NCBI RefSeq assembly: GCF_007483665.1
Contig: NZ_VIQO01000010.1
Location: forward strand, 1 to 64,000
Reading direction: 5' to 3'
DNA: 64,000 nucleotides
From: Catellatospora sichuanensis
GTDB taxonomy: Bacteria > Actinomycetota > Actinomycetes > Mycobacteriales > Micromonosporaceae
Part shown: one piece after another, positions 35,477-62,072 of the stretch
Position numbering within the stretch: position 1 is the first letter of the stretch
How the letters are laid out: every line of letters begins with the position of its first letter
The notes under the pieces: model-generated
What the model was told of the DNA's origin: nothing
Databases searched by the model: none
The model's input: only the letters and a program-made list of their open reading frames with translations
Translations under genes and position numbers: made by a program

Positions 35477-35796
35477 ACGGCGCACTCACCCGGTACCGCA
35501 TCATCGCCTGGATCGTGGGCGTGCTGCTGCTCGCGCTGACCCTGGTCGCCATGCCGATGAAGTACTTCGGCGACAACAACCTGGGCGTGATGATCATCGC
35601 CCCGGTGCACGGCTGGCTGTACGTGGTCTACCTGGCCGCCGTCGGCGACCTGGCGCGCCGGGTGCAGTGGCCGGTCACCCGCATCCTGCTGGTGGCGCTG
35701 GCCGGCACCATCCCGTTCCTGTCGTTCATCATGGAGCGCCGCGTGGTCGGCTGGCTCAGCGGCACGGACCGGCAGCCCTCGTTCACAGAAGCGTGA
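35473..35796 (+). CDS. DUF3817-type membrane protein
   Basis: 107 aa with three membrane segments. RYRIIAWIVGVLLL, APVHGWLYVVYL and PFLSFIMERRV match the DUF3817 pattern common in actinobacteria. Role unknown. ATG overlaps the previous stop. The 3' end overlaps the convergent radical SAM gene by 14 bp. Confidence 0.82.
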   Translation: MNGALTRYRIIAWIVGVLLLALTLVAMPMKYFGDNNLGVMIIAPVHGWLYVVYLAAVGDLARRVQWPVTRILLVALAGTIPFLSFIMERRVVGWLSGTDRQPSFTEA

Positions 35797-37837
35797 GCTG
35801 AACGCCCGTCGCCTCCGAGGCGGCGGGCGGCTCCGTCTCGTCCCCCGCCATCACCAGGTCCCGCGCCGGCGTGTCGCGGGCCGGCAGCCCGTGCCGCCGG
35901 CACGCGCGGCGCACCTTCGCGGTGACCAGCCGCTGGTAGTCGGCGCTCACGTAGGCCCGGTCGCCGGGATAGAGCCGCTGGTAGAACGGCACCAGCTCGG
36001 GGTGGTTCGCGGCGAGCCAGCCCAGATACCACTCCCGGGCGCCGGGCCGCAGGTGCAGGACCAGCGGCGTGATGCTCGCGGCCCCTGCCGCGACCAGCGC
36101 CCCGACCGTCGCGTCGAGCTGCTCCTCGCTGTCGGACAGGCCCGGCAGGATCGGCGCCATCAGCACCCCGACCCGCAGCCCCGCGTCGCTCATCCGGCGC
36201 ACCGCGTCCAGCCGCCGGGACGGGCTCGGCGTGCCCGACTCGACGCTGCGCCACAGCGCCTCGTCGAGGAAGCCGATGGAGAACGCCACCGACACCCGGG
36301 CCCGCTGCGCCGCCTGCTGCAGCAGCGGTAGATCACGCAGGATCAGGGTGCCCTTGGTGAGGATCGAGAACGGGTTCGACCAGTCCGACAGCGCCCCGAT
36401 GATGCCCGGCATCAGCTGGTAGCGACCTTCGGCGCGCTGGTAGCAGTCGACGTTGGTGCCCATCGCGATCGGCTTGCCGTCCCAGCGGGGCGAGGCCAGC
36501 TCGCGGCGCAGCAGCTCGGGCGCGTTCACCTTCACCACGATCTTCGAGTCGAAGTCGTGGCCGGTGTCCAGGTCGAGGTAGCTGTGCGTGTTGCGGGCGA
36601 AGCAGTTGTGGCTGACCACGCCGTTGGCGATGAAGTCGCCGGTGCCGGTGGTGATGTCCCACAGCGGCAGCTCCAGGCCGAGCGGCTCGATCGACGCCAC
36701 GTGCAGCGGCACGGTGCCCTTGATCGCGACGCCCTGCACCGTGCGCCGCCGGGTCACCGCCGGGTCGGTCAGGTGGAAGAAGCGCAGCTTCTCCGGCAGG
36801 CCGCCGAGCATCCGCAGGCTGAGCAGCCCGATCGGGTCGCGCCGGTCCTCGACGGCGAACTCGAACCCGAACGCGCGCAGCGCCGCCCGGGTGGGCTCGA
36901 CCAGCTCCGGGTCGGTGTGCACGATGCGCCACAGGCCCTGGGTGTGGCTGCCCTCGGCGTCGAAGACCCCGGCCAGGAAGCCCTTGTCCCACTCGGCGTC
37001 GCGTTCCTCGGGCCGCTGCAGCAGCAGGCCGATCAGATCGAGATCACGCCGGGCGTACGTGCGCAGCCCCGTGCGCTGGCCCAGCGGCGTGTACTCGGCG
37101 GTGTGCACACCGGACTCGCGCAGGTAGCCGATCGTGCGGCTGAGCACCTGCGGCTCGGCACAGGCCAGCCGGAACCGCGGCACGGTGCCGTACGGGTCGC
37201 GGTAGCCGGTCTCCGGCTCCGGGCGCAGCACCGCGTGCAGGTAGCCGCGGCGGTATTCGGGGGACTCCTTGGGCTGCTCGGCGAACCGGCCGGTGCCCAT
37301 CAGCTTGTTGCCGGTGGTCAGGTGCGGCCGCTGGTCGGCCCCGGAGCGCGCCCCGGTGACGTGCTTCCAGCCCCGGTCGGTCAGGAACCGGTGGTCGCCG
37401 CTGGCCACCAGCTCGGTGCCGTCGCGCAGGGTCACCCGGTAGGCGGGCTTCACCGTGGACCACTTGTCCCGCACGTGGGTCACCGCGTATCGCCGGTAGG
37501 AGCCCTCGCGGACCGTGCCGACGATCGCGTCGCCGACGCGCAGCTCGGCGATGGGTTTGGTGCGCCCGTCGGCCATCAGCACGGGAGTGTCCCCGGCCAG
37601 GCAGTACGAGCAGGCATGGGTGCAGCCGCGATACGGGTTGATCGTGTATTCGAACGGCACCCCGCGCCGCTCGCCCGCCACCTTGTTGATCAGTGACTTG
37701 GCGCGTACCTCGTAGAACGTCATGCCGGCGAAGCCGGGCGTGTCGAACGTACGCACGACCGCGCCGGGCAGCGGCTGCTGCACCGGCGCGGTCGCGTCCG
37801 GCGGGGTGCTGCTCTCGGTGAGATGACTCCAGCGCAC
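35783..37837 (-). CDS. Rv2578c-family radical SAM protein interrupted by an intein
   Basis: 684 aa precursor. The N-extein (residues 1-78) ends in CTHACSY; the intein is residues 79-411; the C-extein restarts with CFARNTHSYLDLD. After splicing (about 351 aa), CTHACSYC gives the CxxxCxxC that binds the 4Fe-4S cluster, so the third cluster Cys is also the intein +1 residue. Without splicing the enzyme cannot be active. GTG 37837 is preferred over TTG 37849, since the latter lies inside a LexA-like box. It follows the thioredoxin gene by 27 bp on the same strand. The reaction is unknown; the family is related to SPL/Rv2578c proteins. Confidence 0.88.
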   Translation of the reverse strand: MRWSHLTESSTPPDATAPVQQPLPGAVVRTFDTPGFAGMTFYEVRAKSLINKVAGERRGVPFEYTINPYRGCTHACSYCLAGDTPVLMADGRTKPIAELRVGDAIVGTVREGSYRRYAVTHVRDKWSTVKPAYRVTLRDGTELVASGDHRFLTDRGWKHVTGARSGADQRPHLTTGNKLMGTGRFAEQPKESPEYRRGYLHAVLRPEPETGYRDPYGTVPRFRLACAEPQVLSRTIGYLRESGVHTAEYTPLGQRTGLRTYARRDLDLIGLLLQRPEERDAEWDKGFLAGVFDAEGSHTQGLWRIVHTDPELVEPTRAALRAFGFEFAVEDRRDPIGLLSLRMLGGLPEKLRFFHLTDPAVTRRRTVQGVAIKGTVPLHVASIEPLGLELPLWDITTGTGDFIANGVVSHNCFARNTHSYLDLDTGHDFDSKIVVKVNAPELLRRELASPRWDGKPIAMGTNVDCYQRAEGRYQLMPGIIGALSDWSNPFSILTKGTLILRDLPLLQQAAQRARVSVAFSIGFLDEALWRSVESGTPSPSRRLDAVRRMSDAGLRVGVLMAPILPGLSDSEEQLDATVGALVAAGAASITPLVLHLRPGAREWYLGWLAANHPELVPFYQRLYPGDRAYVSADYQRLVTAKVRRACRRHGLPARDTPARDLVMAGDETEPPAASEATGVQLTLL
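36605..37603 (-). other. Intein with LAGLIDADG endonuclease region
   Basis: 333 residues. Block A is CLAGDTPVLMADG (Cys1), block B is ELVASGDHRFLT with the conserved His, block F is LWDITTGTGDFIANG and block G is VVSHN followed by Cys. One LAGLIDADG-type motif is clear (GFLAGVFDAEGS, intein residues about 208-219). The expected first motif may be the degenerate RRGYLHAVL near 118, so homing activity may be lost while splicing residues are intact. Confidence 0.9.
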
Positions 37838-37845
37838 CCCGCTAT

Positions 37846-37861
37846 TCAAACATATGTTCGA
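37846..37861 (-). promoter_or_regulatory. LexA-like SOS box before the radical SAM gene
   Basis: On the minus strand TCGAACATATGTTTGA; the actinobacterial/Gram-positive LexA consensus is CGAAC-N4-GTTCG, so only one base differs. It sits between the thioredoxin stop (37865) and the proposed GTG (37837). TATGTT within it could be the -10. This suggests DNA-damage control. Confidence 0.6.
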
Positions 37862-37864
37862 AAA

Positions 37865-38221
37865 CTAAGCAGCCTTCGCGTCCGCCTGCACCTGCTCCAT
37901 GTCGAGCTCGCGCACCTTCTGGATCAGGTCCAGGAACGCGGCCTCGGGCAGCGCGCCCGGCTGCGAGTACACGATCACGTTGTCGCGGATCGCCATGATC
38001 GTGGGGATCGACTGGATGTTGAAGTGCATGGCGAGCTCCTGCTGCGCCTCAGTGTCGACCTTGCCGAAGGTGACGTCCGGGTTCGCCTCGGCGGCCCGCT
38101 CGTAGACCGGCGCGAAACGGACACACGGGCCACACCAGCTCGCCCAGAAGTCGACGAACGTGATGCCGTCGCCGCTCGTCTTCTCGCCGAAGTTGTCGGT
38201 GGTGAACTCCACGGTGCCCAT
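37865..38221 (-). CDS. Thioredoxin
   Basis: 118 aa, classical thioredoxin fold with active site WASWCGPCVRFAP near residue 32 and the cis-Pro in QSIPTIMAI near 75. It reduces disulfides in the cytoplasm. ATG 38221 follows TGAGGAG seven bases upstream; a longer start at 38236 has no such site. It lies just upstream of the Fe-S radical SAM gene and 150 bp from a divergent DCC-type thiol protein. Confidence 0.92.
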   Translation of the reverse strand: MGTVEFTTDNFGEKTSGDGITFVDFWASWCGPCVRFAPVYERAAEANPDVTFGKVDTEAQQELAMHFNIQSIPTIMAIRDNVIVYSQPGALPEAAFLDLIQKVRELDMEQVQADAKAA

Positions 38222-38371
38222 CGTCGTGCTCCTCATTTCATCGAGTGACCAGCGTCCATGTAAACCACTGTGCCACCTAGCTCATTCCCGTCCCGTCCAC
38301 GGTACCGACGGTGACGTGACACACAGGGCATCCCGCGATACGGCGGGCGCGTTGCGGAGGAGCATGGAGGC

Positions 38372-38740
38372 GTGCCCGCGACCTTCGTCTACGACGGCGA
38401 CTGCGCCTTCTGCACCCGGTGCGTCGAGTTCATCCGCCGCCGGGTGCCGACCGACGCCGTGATCGTGCCCTGGCACCGCGCGGACCTGCCCGCCCTGGGC
38501 CTGACCCGCGAACAGTGCCTGGAGGCGGTGCAGTACGTCGAGCTCGGCCGGCCCGCGCTCGCCGGCCCTGCCGCGATCGCCGCGCTGCTGCGGGCGAGCC
38601 GCTCGGCGTGGCGTCCGCTGGGCGGCGCGCTGGGCCTGCCCGGCGTCGGGCTCGTGTCGTGGCCGGTCTACCGCTGGATCGCCCGGCACCGCCACCAGCT
38701 CCCGGGTGGCACCGCCGCCTGCGCCGTACCTCCGCCCTGA
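38372..38740 (+). CDS. DCC1-like thiol-disulfide oxidoreductase family protein
   Basis: 122 aa DUF393 (DCC) protein. The family signature YDGDCAFCTRC near residues 7-17 has the conserved Asp-x-x-Cys-x-x-Cys, and a later WPVYRWIARHR is also typical. GTG 38372 follows GGAGGAG. Its redox partner is unknown. It is divergent from thioredoxin. The 150-bp gap between them (38222-38371) shows nothing else. Confidence 0.87.
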   Translation: MPATFVYDGDCAFCTRCVEFIRRRVPTDAVIVPWHRADLPALGLTREQCLEAVQYVELGRPALAGPAAIAALLRASRSAWRPLGGALGLPGVGLVSWPVYRWIARHRHQLPGGTAACAVPPP

Positions 38741-38760: not shown

Positions 38761-38825
38761 ATAGACGTTGGCCTATCACATCGAGAATTTGTCGATCAAA
38801 CTCGATGTGATAGGCCAACGTCTAT
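38761..38825. repeat. Convergent-gap hairpin element, copy B
   Basis: A perfect 25-bp stem (38761-38785 with 38801-38825) containing GTTGGCCTATCACATCGA. The 15-nt loop has an inner TTTG-TCGAT-CAAA hairpin in place of the TCCG/CGGA of the other copies. It lies between the DCC gene (+) and the MaoC gene (-). AAAA follows the stem. Confidence 0.88.
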
Positions 38826-38887: not shown

Positions 38888-39355
38888 CTACTCGGCAGCG
38901 GCTTCGGGGCGCTTGGGGACCATGACCTTGCGCTTGAAGATGCAGACCAGGGTGCCGTCCTGGTTGTAGCCCCGGGTCTCGACGCTGACCACGCCGCGGT
39001 CGGGCTTGGAACCGGACTCGCGCTTGTCCAGCACCGTGGTCTCGCCGTAGATGGTGTCGCCGTGGAAGGTCGGCGCGACGTGGCGCAGGCTCTCGACCTC
39101 GAGGTTGGCGATGGCCTTGCCGCTGACGTCGGGCACCGACATGCCGAGCAGCAGCGAGTAGATGTAGTTGCCGACCACGACGTTGCGCTTGAACTCCGTC
39201 TGCGTCGCCGCGTAATGGGCGTCCAGGTGCAGCGGGTGATGGTTCATCGTCAGCAGGCAGAACAGGTGGTCGTCGTACTCCGTGACCGTCTTGCCGGGCC
39301 AGTGCTTGTAGATCGCCCCGACCTCGAACTCCTCGAAGTAGCGCCCGAACTGCAT
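38888..39355 (-). CDS. MaoC-family hotdog dehydratase
   Basis: 155 aa single-hotdog hydratase. FEVGAIYKHWPGKTVTEYDDHLFCLLTMNHHPLHLDAHYA carries the hydratase motif (Asp and His, about residues 26-45). MaoC proteins hydrate trans-enoyl-CoA; related enzymes act on mesaconyl-CoA. ATG 39355 follows GGGAG. The CoA ester lyase at 29364 and acyl-CoA dehydrogenase at 33048 make a mesaconyl-CoA hydratase role worth testing. Confidence 0.85.
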   Translation of the reverse strand: MQFGRYFEEFEVGAIYKHWPGKTVTEYDDHLFCLLTMNHHPLHLDAHYAATQTEFKRNVVVGNYIYSLLLGMSVPDVSGKAIANLEVESLRHVAPTFHGDTIYGETTVLDKRESGSKPDRGVVSVETRGYNQDGTLVCIFKRKVMVPKRPEAAAE

Positions 39356-39572
39356 GGTCCGTCTCCCGCCCCTGGATGCAGCGAACGGCGGGGCCCTCCC
39401 CGGCACCCGCCGCCCGCGCTTGTGAAAAGGATTCTGCACGAGCGTTACCGGTGAGTACATAGGCCGCACCGAGAACTACATCACAGACAACGGTTCCGGT
39501 CTCCGGGGGTGATTGGCACGCTTCGCGGCAAGCGTCCGCGGTCGCGGCATATGCTGACGGCAGGAGGTCGCC

Positions 39573-40126: not shown

Positions 40127-41023
40127 GTGACCATCGAACGGGACGCGGACGCCGTCAGGCCGCAAGAGCAGCGGCCCGACGGCGGTCGTGTGCCTGCTGG
40201 GCGCGCGGTGCGCGCCGTCAGGCCGCAAGAGCAGCGGCCCGACGGCGGTCGTGTGCCTGCTGGGCGCGCGGTGCGCGCCGTCAGGCCGCAAGAGCAGCGG
40301 CCCGACGGCGTCCGCGTGCCCGCCGGGCGCACCGCGCAGGACGTCGCGCCGCCGCAGGCGACCCCGGACGGCGTGGACGGCTTCGGCACGGGTGGCCCGG
40401 CCGCCGAGGACGAGCAGGCGGTCGGCGTCGGCCCGTGGGCCGGTCGGTGGCCGGAGGGCGACCACTACGACCCCGAGCTGCTCGCCGGGGGCGACCGGCG
40501 CAACGTGGTGGACCGCTACCGGTACTGGCGGCACGAGGCGATCGTGGCCGACCTGGACACCCGACGGCACGAGTTCCACGTCGCCATCGAGAACTGGCAG
40601 CACGACTTCAACATCGGCACGGTGGTGCGCACCGCGAACGCGTTCCTGGCCGCCGAGGTGCACATCGTGGGCCGCCGCCGCTGGAACCGGCGCGGCGCCA
40701 TGGTGACCGACCGCTACCAGCACGTACGCCATCACGACTCGATCGGGGCGTTCGCCGCCTGGGCGCGGGGCGCCGGAGTGGCCGTCATCGGCATCGACAA
40801 CCTGCCGGGCAGCCGTCCGCTGGAGACGACCACCCTGCCGCGGCACTGCGTGCTCCTGTTCGGCCAGGAGGGTCCCGGGCTGTCCGAGGCGGCCCGGGCG
40901 GCGTGCGACCAGATGTACTCGATCGCCCAGTACGGCTCGACCCGCTCGGTCAACGCCGGGGTGGCCTCGGCGGTCGCCATGCACGCCTGGATCCGCTCGT
41001 ACGCCGGCCCGCCCCCGGCCTGA
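40127..41023 (+). CDS. TrmH/SpoU-family RNA 2'-O-methyltransferase
   Basis: 298 aa. The catalytic SPOUT domain starts about residue 145: motif 1 NIGTVVRTANAF, motif 2 LLFGQEGPGLS and motif 3 SIAQYGSTRSVNAGVASAVAMHAW. These form the knotted SAM site, and the Arg of motif 1 is the usual catalytic residue. It methylates tRNA or rRNA; the site is unknown. The first 85 residues contain three copies of a 21-residue repeat from a 63-bp tandem duplication, not normal for the family. GTG 40127 has no clear ribosome site; TAAAAT lies nine bases before it. Confidence 0.85.
   Translation: MTIERDADAVRPQEQRPDGGRVPAGRAVRAVRPQEQRPDGGRVPAGRAVRAVRPQEQRPDGVRVPAGRTAQDVAPPQATPDGVDGFGTGGPAAEDEQAVGVGPWAGRWPEGDHYDPELLAGGDRRNVVDRYRYWRHEAIVADLDTRRHEFHVAIENWQHDFNIGTVVRTANAFLAAEVHIVGRRRWNRRGAMVTDRYQHVRHHDSIGAFAAWARGAGVAVIGIDNLPGSRPLETTTLPRHCVLLFGQEGPGLSEAARAACDQMYSIAQYGSTRSVNAGVASAVAMHAWIRSYAGPPPA
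40151..40330 (+). repeat. 63-bp in-frame tandem repeat at the 5' end of the methyltransferase gene
   Basis: Copies start at 40151, 40214 and 40277. The first two (40151-40213 and 40214-40276) are identical at all 63 bases; the third drifts after about 50 bases. Each encodes AVRPQEQRPDG-RVPAGR. The perfect identity indicates a recent duplication. Confidence 0.92.
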
Positions 41024-60380: not shown

Positions 60381-62072
60381 TCAGAAGGTGGCGGCCAGGA
60401 AGCCGATGGTGATGAGGAGGGGGCCGGCGAAGGCGAGGCCGACGGCGGCGAGGCGTTCGTGCCGCTCCGGCAGGCGCATGGCGCCGGTGGCGAAGACGAT
60501 GGCGATCGAGCAGAGCAGCACGATCGACAGCCCCACCATCCAGCGCAGGTGCAGGCCACCGGTGCCGTTGGTGACGTACGCCCGGTGGCTGCCCGCCCCG
60601 ACCATGCGCGCCGGTGCGCTCAGGCCCTCGGCCTGCCCGGGCGGGCCGAGCACGTTGACCGAGGCGGCCGTGAAGTCGCGGGCCGGGGTGGCGAACTCGC
60701 CCACGCAGCGCTGCGTGAGTCCGCTGCCCGCGCAGCTGGTGACGGTCAGGGTGCCGGCCTTGCCGTGACCCACCGCGAGCCACAGCGGCTCCGCGCTGAC
60801 CCAGCTGAAGAACGCGGCGACCAGCCCGAACAGGATGAGCAGCGGCATCGCGACACCGGCCCGCCGCGGCGGGCGGGGCCGCTTCGCCCGCTTGCGCGCC
60901 GGGGCGGCCTCCTGTCGGCGGCGGTCGCCGTGCAGCCGGGGGTCGATCCAGCTCTCCCGCGGGATCTCCTGCACCGGCATGGTGAACGCCTCGGTGGACG
61001 CGGACATCCCGGGAGCCTGCGCGTGCGGCGCTCCCGCCACCGGTCGATGTGCTGCGGGCAGCGCGACCGTGGGGCGAGCGGAGCCGGCGGGGGAAACGGG
61101 GGCGGGGCGACCGGCCGGGGCGGCGGTGTCGGCGTCCGGCAGGTCCGCGTGCCAGTCGTCCTGGTCTGCCAGGTCCACCGTCACGGCGCTGCGTGCCGCA
61201 TGTGGCCGGCCGGGTGCCGTCAGGGGCCGGTCCGGCGCCGCGGAGTCGGCTGCCGGGTCGGCGGGGGGCGGGTCGGCAGGCAGCGCGTACTGGTCGAACG
61301 GTTCGTCGGGGTCGAGGCGGCGGGTGGGCTCGCCGAGCCAGGACGGGTTCCTGCGGCCGGGCTCCGGCAGGTCGAGGTCGAAGCGGCCGGTCGGCTCGCC
61401 GAGCCAGGCGGGATGCGTGCGCCCCGACGCGTACTCGGATTCGGGGTCGGCGGCGAGGTCTTCGTCGGAATCCGGGTTCGCGACATCCTCCGCCTGCGGC
61501 GATGCCTCAGCGTCCGGCGAGGCCTTGCCATCGGTGACCGGCTCCGGACGGTCCTCGACGCTCTCGGCTACCGGCTCGGGGCGAGCCGTGATGTGTTCGG
61601 TGACCGGCTCGGGGCGAGCCGCGGTGCTTTCGGTGACCGGCTCGGGGCGAGCCGCGGTGCTTTCGGTGACCGGCTCGGGGCGAGCCGCGGTGCTCTCGGT
61701 GACCGGCTCGGGGCGAGCCGCGGTGCTCTCGGTGACCGGCTCGGGGCGAGCCGCGGTGCTCTCGGTGACCGGCTCAGGGCGGGCCTCGGCGGTGTCGGTC
61801 ACGGGTTCCGGACGGGCGGCGGCACCGTGCTCGACGTGTTGCTGCGGTGCCGTGTCCTGCGGCACCGGCGGGTGCGGGTCGTCGGGGCGGCGCCACGGCG
61901 TATCGGTGTCGCCGGGCGCGGTCAGTGCCACCAGGCCGGGCGGTGGCGGCGCGACGAGCGTGCCGGACCGGCCGGGCCGGGAGGGAGGGGCTTCGTCGCG
62001 GGCGGGGGCCGCGCCGGGCTCGACCCGCTGGGTGGGCTCATCATGCGCGAGGCTGTCCACGTTATCCCTCAT
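60381..62072 (-). CDS. Repeat-rich membrane protein, unknown function
   Basis: 563 aa. The first 400 residues are disordered and Pro/Ala/Glu/Asp-rich, with nine 11-residue repeats ([11 protein letters not shown] type, residues 86-184) and two copies of a [14 protein letters not shown] / [13 protein letters not shown] module near 220-255. The C-terminal part has a membrane segment (about 415-435), an outer loop with two Cys ([14 protein letters not shown]) and two further segments. The tail may be cytoplasmic and bind partners. ATG 62072. No family recognised. Confidence 0.75.
61521..61817 (-). repeat. 33-bp in-frame minisatellite
   Basis: Nine 33-bp units, five of them nearly identical at DNA level, encoding ARPEPVT-x4. 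Flanking units (VTDTAE, VTEHIT, VAESVE, VTDGKA variants) have diverged, showing expansion from the centre. Confidence 0.92.

What the first reader, a model, noticed from the sequence alone, without database searches (positions are those of the whole stretch)
36605..37603. Intein splits the radical SAM Fe-S motif so that splicing gates cluster assembly
The host motif CxxxCxxC is interrupted immediately before its third Cys. Cys1 of the intein and Cys+1 of the C-extein are both present (SYC at the upstream junction, HNC at the downstream junction). Before splicing, Cys1 could occupy the third ligand position, but the downstream chain would be wrong. The intein may therefore act as a redox or metal switch. 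One LAGLIDADG motif is good and the other looks degenerate.
Basis: partly seen in the sequence, partly recalled or inferred. Interest (0 to 1): 0.6.

Follow-up and report, generated by a model that had tools for sequence, protein, structure and literature searches.

The report
Intein inside radical SAM cluster motif
A self-removing protein insert sits in the exact spot where a probable DNA-repair enzyme binds its iron-sulfur cluster, so the enzyme can only become complete after the insert cuts itself out; this is an already catalogued kind of insert, and the idea that it also works as an oxygen switch is plausible but unproven.

Summary
Window 36605-37603 (- strand) is a 333-residue class 1 intein (Cys1 ... 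SGDH ... VVSHN|Cys+1) placed exactly before the third cysteine of the CxxxCxxC motif of an Rv2578c-family radical SAM protein. NCBI already has a model for it (NF038136, 823.6 bits, cut-off 700). Relatives without the intein have an unbroken CxxxCxxCFAR. In 394 genomes of the class, 31 pass the intein model's cut-off. Copies range from 143-residue mini-inteins to 350 residues, an endonuclease-decay series; all 11 genomes of the window's genus share a degraded first LAGLIDADG motif (RPEP for RGDG). That splicing must precede a correct cluster follows from position. A redox switch is plausible: Cys-3 and Cys1 have the geometry reported for the Pyrococcus abyssi MoaA intein. But nothing here shows selection for it: presence is patchy, and the thioredoxin neighbour and a LexA/SOS-like box are shared with intein-free relatives. 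No conserved metal site was seen in the intein. The conserved SOS-like box is the useful addition: the host is probably a DNA-damage-induced enzyme. New member of a known kind.

The parts
35783..37837 (-). precursor gene: Rv2578c-family (SplB-like) radical SAM protein with in-frame intein (ORF open from TTG 37849; GTG 37837 is the likelier start)
   Evidence: NF038136 823.6 bits over cut-off 700, PF04055 40.1 bits over 29.5; start inferred from family alignment
36605..37603 (-). intein, 333 aa, Cys1 to Asn333
   Evidence: junctions read; Hint fold by predicted structure
37610..37624 (-). first two host cluster cysteines of CxxxCxxC (C76 and C80 of the ORF; C80 is Cys-3 relative to the intein)
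   Evidence: invariant in the 69 aligned precursors
36602..36604 (-). third cluster cysteine, which is also the splicing nucleophile Cys+1
37211..37246 (-). first LAGLIDADG motif of the intein, degenerate (GYLHAVLRPEPE, intein residues 120-131)
36944..36982 (-). second LAGLIDADG motif of the intein, canonical (GFLAGVFDAEGSH, intein residues 208-220)
37846..37861 (.). LexA/SOS-box-like palindrome (TCGAACNNNNGTTCGA with one mismatch) just upstream of the likely start
   Evidence: conservation in relatives
37865..38236 (-). thioredoxin-like gene (WCGPC) directly upstream, same strand; goes with the host locus, not with the intein
   Evidence: TIGR01068 90.3 bits, just under its cut-off 96.8; neighbourhood tally

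Best explanation
A class 1 intein, originally a homing element, occupies the codons between the second and third cluster cysteines of a probably LexA-regulated, SplB-like radical SAM enzyme. The precursor cannot hold a normal [4Fe-4S] cluster; the intein excises itself through Cys1, the block B His, Asn333 and Cys+1, and ligation restores CxxxCxxC, after which the cluster can be built. The intein reached this lineage by lateral transfer into a conserved DNA site; in the window's genus it is now inherited vertically with an endonuclease that has probably lost homing. Shown: position, intein anatomy, empty-site relatives, decay series, one group in the genus. Inferred: that it splices, that splicing is unconditional in normal cells, that homing is lost, the direction and fact of lateral transfer. 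Redox sensitivity is a likely chemical side-effect of Cys-3 facing Cys1 rather than an evolved switch.
For: NF038136 over cut-off; junction residues; block B His in 120 of 120 intein copies aligned; predicted Hint plus LAGLIDADG fold; intein-free relatives with unbroken motif; patchy presence: in the window's family 21 of 37 genomes have the intein (11 of them the window's genus), 11 an empty host gene, 5 no host match; on the host tree of 37 rows presence needs 10 changes, about as many as shuffled labels (mean 11.6, 105 of 500 as low), although well-supported branches alone force only 2; inteins of the 11 genus members form one group, SH-aLRT 94, next to two from other orders, L125 and L070 (SH-aLRT 90), whose hosts are much farther (0.41 and 0.54) than their inteins (0.20 and 0.23); range from intact RGDG/DAEG copies to 23 mini-inteins of 143-166 aa.
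Against: No splicing was measured. The endonuclease region in the genus is still constrained (dN/dS 0.37, 95% 0.28-0.49, against 0.27 for exteins and 0.21 for Hint), so it may keep a function (folding, or residual cleavage, as motif 1 keeps a Glu). The intein persists in 11 of 11 genus members although homing is probably lost, which a selected role would also explain. The splicing domain may simply evolve more slowly than the host, and L125 and L070 are metagenome bins that could be mislabelled, which weakens the transfer argument. Host and intein distances correlate (r 0.37, 0 of 999 permutations as high). Both trees are quick ones with many weak branches.
Confidence: 0.82

Rival explanations
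1. Evolved redox switch: under oxidation Cys-3 (second cluster ligand) and Cys1 form a disulfide that blocks the first splicing step, holding the oxygen-sensitive enzyme as a cluster-free precursor until the cytoplasm (for example thioredoxin, encoded next door) is reducing again; the cell benefits during DNA-damage responses.
For: Cys-3 and Cys1 both present, the geometry reported for the P. abyssi MoaA intein and for an engineered trap (passages in PMC10663303 and PMC3922620); thioredoxin-like gene directly upstream in 11 of 11 genus members; SOS-like box upstream; 23 mini-inteins without endonuclease keep the splicing residues (rows were chosen by junction pattern).
Against: Cys-3 is forced by the host motif, so its conservation says nothing; L111 has Ser1, which cannot form the bond; a thioredoxin-like gene is also found in 5 of 11 other intein-bearing and 6 of 11 intein-free loci of the family; the SOS-like box is as common in intein-free loci, 10 of 14 with at most one mismatch; in other genera of the family 11 of 21 host genes lack the intein.
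Confidence: 0.15
2. Metal or cluster switch: the precursor's CxxxCxx-Cys1 binds iron, zinc or a cluster and this controls splicing.
For: The spacing C76-x3-C80-x2-Cys1 is present in the precursor; zinc inhibition of another intein, mycobacterial DnaB, is reported (PMC7360933, title and start of abstract in a listing).
Against: One CxxC in 120 inteins and only Cys1 in 22 of 23 mini-inteins; the ligand loop, residues 76-79, is predicted with pLDDT under 50 in the precursor, which is weak evidence.
Confidence: 0.07
3. The endonuclease is still active and the intein is still homing in this genus.
For: Second motif canonical, Glu kept in the first, region under purifying selection.
Against: Both glycines of RGDG are proline in 11 of 11 genus members; the genus inteins form one group; lineages that lost catalytic residues (Lentzea, DDEN or DDET / DYLG, dN/dS 0.12) are constrained too, so constraint does not show cleavage.
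Confidence: 0.15

Closest known systems
NCBIfam NF038136 rSAM_Rv_intein (intein-containing Rv2578c family radical SAM protein)
   Same: Full-length match over the curated cut-off; host and intein together
   Different: 650 window residues match 572 model positions, so the window copy is about 78 residues longer than the model; copies vary from mini-inteins to full length
Pyrococcus abyssi MoaA intein (Callahan et al. 2011; paper not held; known here from passages of two reviews)
   Same: Intein in an oxygen-sensitive enzyme, with an N-extein cysteine at -3 and Cys1; disulfide between them blocks splicing there
   Different: Different host family and organism; disulfide shown there, untested here. 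That MoaA is a radical SAM enzyme is recalled, and that its insertion point is the same place in CxxxCxxC is inferred from the -3 numbering; its sequence was not seen
Mycobacterial SufB and DnaB inteins (stress-, zinc- or oxidation-sensitive splicing)
   Same: Actinobacterial inteins with reports on conditional splicing; SufB is an Fe-S assembly protein (titles and starts of abstracts only)
   Different: Other hosts; their insertion sites were not examined here
Streptomyces venezuelae vnz_31145 radical SAM protein of the LexA regulon (PMC9380542, passages)
   Same: Radical SAM protein likened by the authors to enzymes that repair thymine cross-links; in their LexA ChIP-seq table and 19.97-fold up with mitomycin C; LexA motif tCGAAC-N4-GNNCGa
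   Different: Whether vnz_31145 belongs to the Rv2578c family was not tested; no intein is mentioned in the passages seen

Membership tests
Class 1 intein | Cys/Ser at position 1, conserved His in block B, C-terminal His-Asn, Cys/Ser/Thr at +1 (definition recalled) | tested here: met
   Cys1, SGDH, HN|C
Class 1 intein | Hint fold | tested here: met
   predicted model, 1mi8 Z 20.7, rmsd 1.8, 136 aligned
Class 1 intein | self-splicing activity | not testable with these tools
   needs expression; empty-site relatives show that the extein join is a normal motif
NF038136 | score over the curated cut-off, full length | tested here: met
   823.6 against 700, model 2-573 of 574
LAGLIDADG homing endonuclease, active | two motifs with acidic residue and flanking glycines | tested here: inconclusive
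   second motif canonical; first has RPEP for RGDG, acid kept as Glu; PF14528 14.7, below its gathering score 22.5
Radical SAM, Rv2578c family | CxxxCxxC once the intein is out; family score | tested here: met
   NF038135 484.4 against 430; motif in empty relatives
MoaA-type redox-trapped intein | N-extein Cys-3 and intein Cys1 | tested here: met
MoaA-type redox-trapped intein | disulfide that blocks splicing under oxidation | not testable with these tools
   bench assay needed
LexA regulon | SOS box in the promoter region | tested here: met
   one mismatch at 37846-37861; conserved in relatives
LexA regulon | LexA binding and induction by DNA damage | not testable with these tools
   bench assay needed

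The most novel reading that the evidence does not exclude
Across Actinomycetes a LexA-induced DNA-repair radical SAM enzyme carries a splicing-gated, thiol-sensitive checkpoint in its cluster motif: damage induces the precursor, oxidation holds it as a Cys-3/Cys1 disulfide with no cluster to be destroyed, and thioredoxin releases it, so that the cluster enzyme appears only when the cytoplasm can keep it alive.
Probability: 0.1. Interest if true: 0.65.

Novelty: new member of a known kind. Interest (0 to 1): 0.3.

Why it matters
An intein whose +1 residue is itself a cluster ligand ties protein splicing to cofactor assembly by geometry alone. The family offers a natural series (empty, intact, degraded, mini, one Ser1 copy) in related hosts that mostly share an SOS-like box, which makes the question of whether such inteins are switches or tolerated parasites directly testable.

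Tried and rejected
Thioredoxin as partner of the intein: a thioredoxin-like gene lies next door in 11 of 11 genus members, but also in 5 of 11 other intein-bearing and 6 of 11 intein-free loci of the family, so it goes with the host locus (only about 0.5-1.5 kb of flank could be searched in these loci).

Metal site inside the intein: none conserved.

Phage carriage: 7 loci came from viral contigs and match only 13-17 residues of the host motif, none with the intein; in phage records 4 Gordonia phage terminases match over 33% of the query at 35.9%. Plasmids: 4 records, one Streptomyces plasmid at 29.5% over the whole query and three haloarchaeal ones at 24-27%.

Cysteine distances in the precursor: the models come without coordinates in the script box, so none was measured.

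Literature: of 20 held papers with two of intein / radical SAM / Rv2578c, the one with Rv2578c has no intein; none holds inteins + actinobacteria + homing endonuclease + radical SAM; none holds Rv2578c + LexA; listings for intein with photolyase/SplB terms (15 of 64 shown, none of the 15 with intein) and SOS box + LexA + M. tuberculosis + splB (2 papers) gave nothing on this intein. I recall that Rv2578c has been listed as LexA-regulated, but saw no source.

Rows dropped or odd: of 108 loci L033-L140 the junction parser took 98. The other 10 were looked at apart: L035, L041, L071, L080, L082, L087, L107 vary around the N-side motif, L110 is cut by the contig end, L111 has Ser1, L122 (Geodermatophilus obscurus draft) is split between frames. 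Since rows were chosen by junction patterns, invariance of Cys1, HN and Cys+1 in the alignments is partly by selection; the block B His was not selected for. L005 and L086 are the same sequence. Five loci lacked enough upstream DNA for the SOS tally; the first tally held a duplicate, viral rows and two wrong stretches and was replaced, which still counts L005 and L086 both. In the window alone the SOS pattern is not rare: 5 places with up to 2 mismatches against 2.02 expected, 4 of 100 shuffles as many; the case rests on conservation.

The AU test did not reject one group of the genus inteins with the two mini-inteins of sister genera (p 0.897), so whether those are one acquisition is open.

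Full report
What is there. The reading frame 35783-37849 on the minus strand encodes an Rv2578c-family radical SAM protein interrupted in frame by a 333-residue intein at 36605-37603. The host motif reads C-THA-C-SY-[Cys1 ... VVSHN]-C-FARNTHSYLDL. NCBIfam NF038136, 'intein-containing Rv2578c family radical SAM protein', matches at 823.6 bits against a cut-off of 700; the host model NF038135 gives 484.4 against 430 and the intein N-terminal model TIGR01445 31.5 against 24.5; the short C-terminal model is just under its cut-off. Pfam Radical_SAM passes (40.1 against 29.5) while Pfam's intein and LAGLIDADG models stay under theirs. So the family was already catalogued.

Structure. AlphaFold2 on the intein with 12 and 14 extein residues and 61 related copies gives mean pLDDT 90.1. 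VIA-align places it with solved inteins (1mi8, Z 20.7, rmsd 1.8, 136 aligned; [quoted passage not shown]), which reflects only the shared Hint fold. Foldseek finds intein endonucleases (PI-PfuI, PI-SceI) and I-DmoI. In the model of the whole precursor (mean pLDDT 84.6) the stretch 76-79 around the first two cluster cysteines has pLDDT under 50; no coordinates were available for distances.

Relatives. Among 61 genomes (the window's own and 60 relatives) 22 carry the intein: 21 over the model's cut-off and one mini-intein under it. In the window's family the split is 21 with intein, 11 with an empty host gene and 5 without a host match, of 37; the 11 genomes of the genus all have it, so in other genera of the family it is 10 with and 11 without. 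In 394 genomes of the class (the window's own included), 31 pass the intein model's cut-off and 172 have some match at 1e-60. The insertion site is the same in all 120 copies whose two junctions were parsed. Empty relatives have the unbroken motif and well-conserved DNA around the site (14 loci). In 130 intein loci position 1 is Cys in 129 and Ser in L111, Cryobacterium algoritolerans.

Decay of the endonuclease. Of 120 aligned intein copies (119 distinct), 97 have 273-350 residues and 23 are mini-inteins of 143-166. Well-kept copies read for example GYLCGMIRGDG and GFLAGIFDAEGSC; the window's genus reads GYLHAVLRPEP (8 of 11) or GYLAGMLRPEP (3 of 11) with a good second motif (one, L013, slightly changed); other lineages lost other residues. 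In the genus the endonuclease region has dN/dS 0.37 (0.28-0.49), exteins 0.27 (0.21-0.35), Hint 0.21 (0.13-0.30); three lineages with damaged motifs give 0.12, 0.39 and 0.50, also below 1. In the genus second codon positions of that region differ at 0.106 per site and third positions at 0.224. I read this as constraint from folding with the Hint domain; residual function is not excluded. The ratios use a simple counting method in GC-rich genomes and are rough.

Inheritance. The genus inteins form one group (SH-aLRT 94) and sit next to L125 and L070 (SH-aLRT 90), copies from bins labelled Streptosporangiales and Solirubrobacterales, although those hosts differ much more (host distance 0.41 and 0.54 against intein 0.20 and 0.23). 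A slower-evolving splicing domain or mislabelled bins could explain part of this. On the host tree of 37 rows intein presence needs 10 changes, about what shuffled labels give (mean 11.6, 105 of 500 as low), while the well-supported branches alone force only 2. Over 120 copies host and intein distances correlate weakly (r 0.37, 0 of 999 permutations as high). This is the pattern expected of a mobile element with lateral transfer and vertical stretches; gain and loss were not told apart.

Promoter and neighbours. A palindrome one mismatch from TCGAACNNNNGTTCGA lies at 37846-37861; with up to 2 mismatches the window holds 5 such places against 2.02 expected, so by itself this is weak. The pattern was recalled; a Streptomyces venezuelae paper gives tCGAAC-N4-GNNCGa and lists a radical SAM protein, compared by its authors with enzymes that repair thymine cross-links, in its LexA table, 19.97-fold up with mitomycin C (PMC9380542, passages). 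In relatives the box occurs with at most one mismatch in 92 of 125 intein-bearing and 10 of 14 intein-free loci, and with at most two in 109 and 13; a control stretch of the same loci gives 0 and 6 of 139. In the window's genome places with two mismatches lie about 0.2 kb upstream of recA and of the best lexA match, none in the 3.6 kb read around two further lexA-like genes. splB genes have been predicted as SOS genes in Proteobacteria (PMC3323433, passages) and SplB-like enzymes linked to SOS operons (PMC3765255, passages). The thioredoxin-like gene upstream is shared with intein-free relatives.

Mechanism. Shown: the intein separates the second and third ligands, and its removal yields the conserved motif. 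From established intein chemistry (recalled): Cys1 thioester, transfer to Cys+1, Asn cyclisation. Inferred: no proper cluster before splicing. The first two ligands plus Cys1 keep CxxxCxxC spacing in the precursor, but this is an automatic result of a Cys1/Cys+1 intein at this site. Redox control has a precedent in the P. abyssi MoaA intein, where a disulfide between Cys-3 and Cys1 blocks splicing (PMC10663303 and PMC3922620, passages); the original paper is not held.

Verdict. The conserved SOS-like box gives the host a likely role in the DNA-damage response and is the most useful addition.

Noticed in passing
window 37846-37861: LexA/SOS-box-like palindrome, one mismatch, conserved upstream of this gene in most relatives examined, with and without the intein; suggests the host is DNA-damage induced.
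   Followed up: yes
window 37865-38236 (-): Thioredoxin-like gene with WCGPC directly upstream on the same strand, neighbour of the radical SAM gene in many family members regardless of intein.
   Followed up: yes
L111 3001-4131 (Cryobacterium algoritolerans): Intein with Ser instead of Cys at position 1 and other motifs present: a natural copy that cannot form the Cys-3/Cys1 disulfide.
   Followed up: partly
L122 (Geodermatophilus obscurus draft): N-side and C-side of the intein-bearing gene lie in different frames: frameshift or assembly error.
   Followed up: no
window 38761-38825: Perfect 25-nt inverted repeat with a 15-nt loop between the + strand ORF 38372-38740 and the - strand ORF 38888-39469; possible terminator or hairpin element.
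   Followed up: no
window 40150-40330: 63-bp tandem repeat, 2.9 copies, 95% matches, in the N-terminal part of a weakly TrmH-like ORF (40127-41023 +).
   Followed up: no
window 61531-61789: 33-bp tandem repeat, 7.8 copies, 90% matches.
   Followed up: no
L154, L155, L156 (G000 contigs C4, C20, C34): Three LexA-like genes over the TIGR00498 cut-off in the window's genome; only the best, on the contig of recA, has an SOS-like site in the stretch read.
   Followed up: partly
G000:C28:2450-2569, C22:172825-173127, C11:196847-197098, C29:15552-15662: Weak matches of the intein N-terminal part in other large reading frames of the same genome: possible further Hint or intein domains.
   Followed up: no
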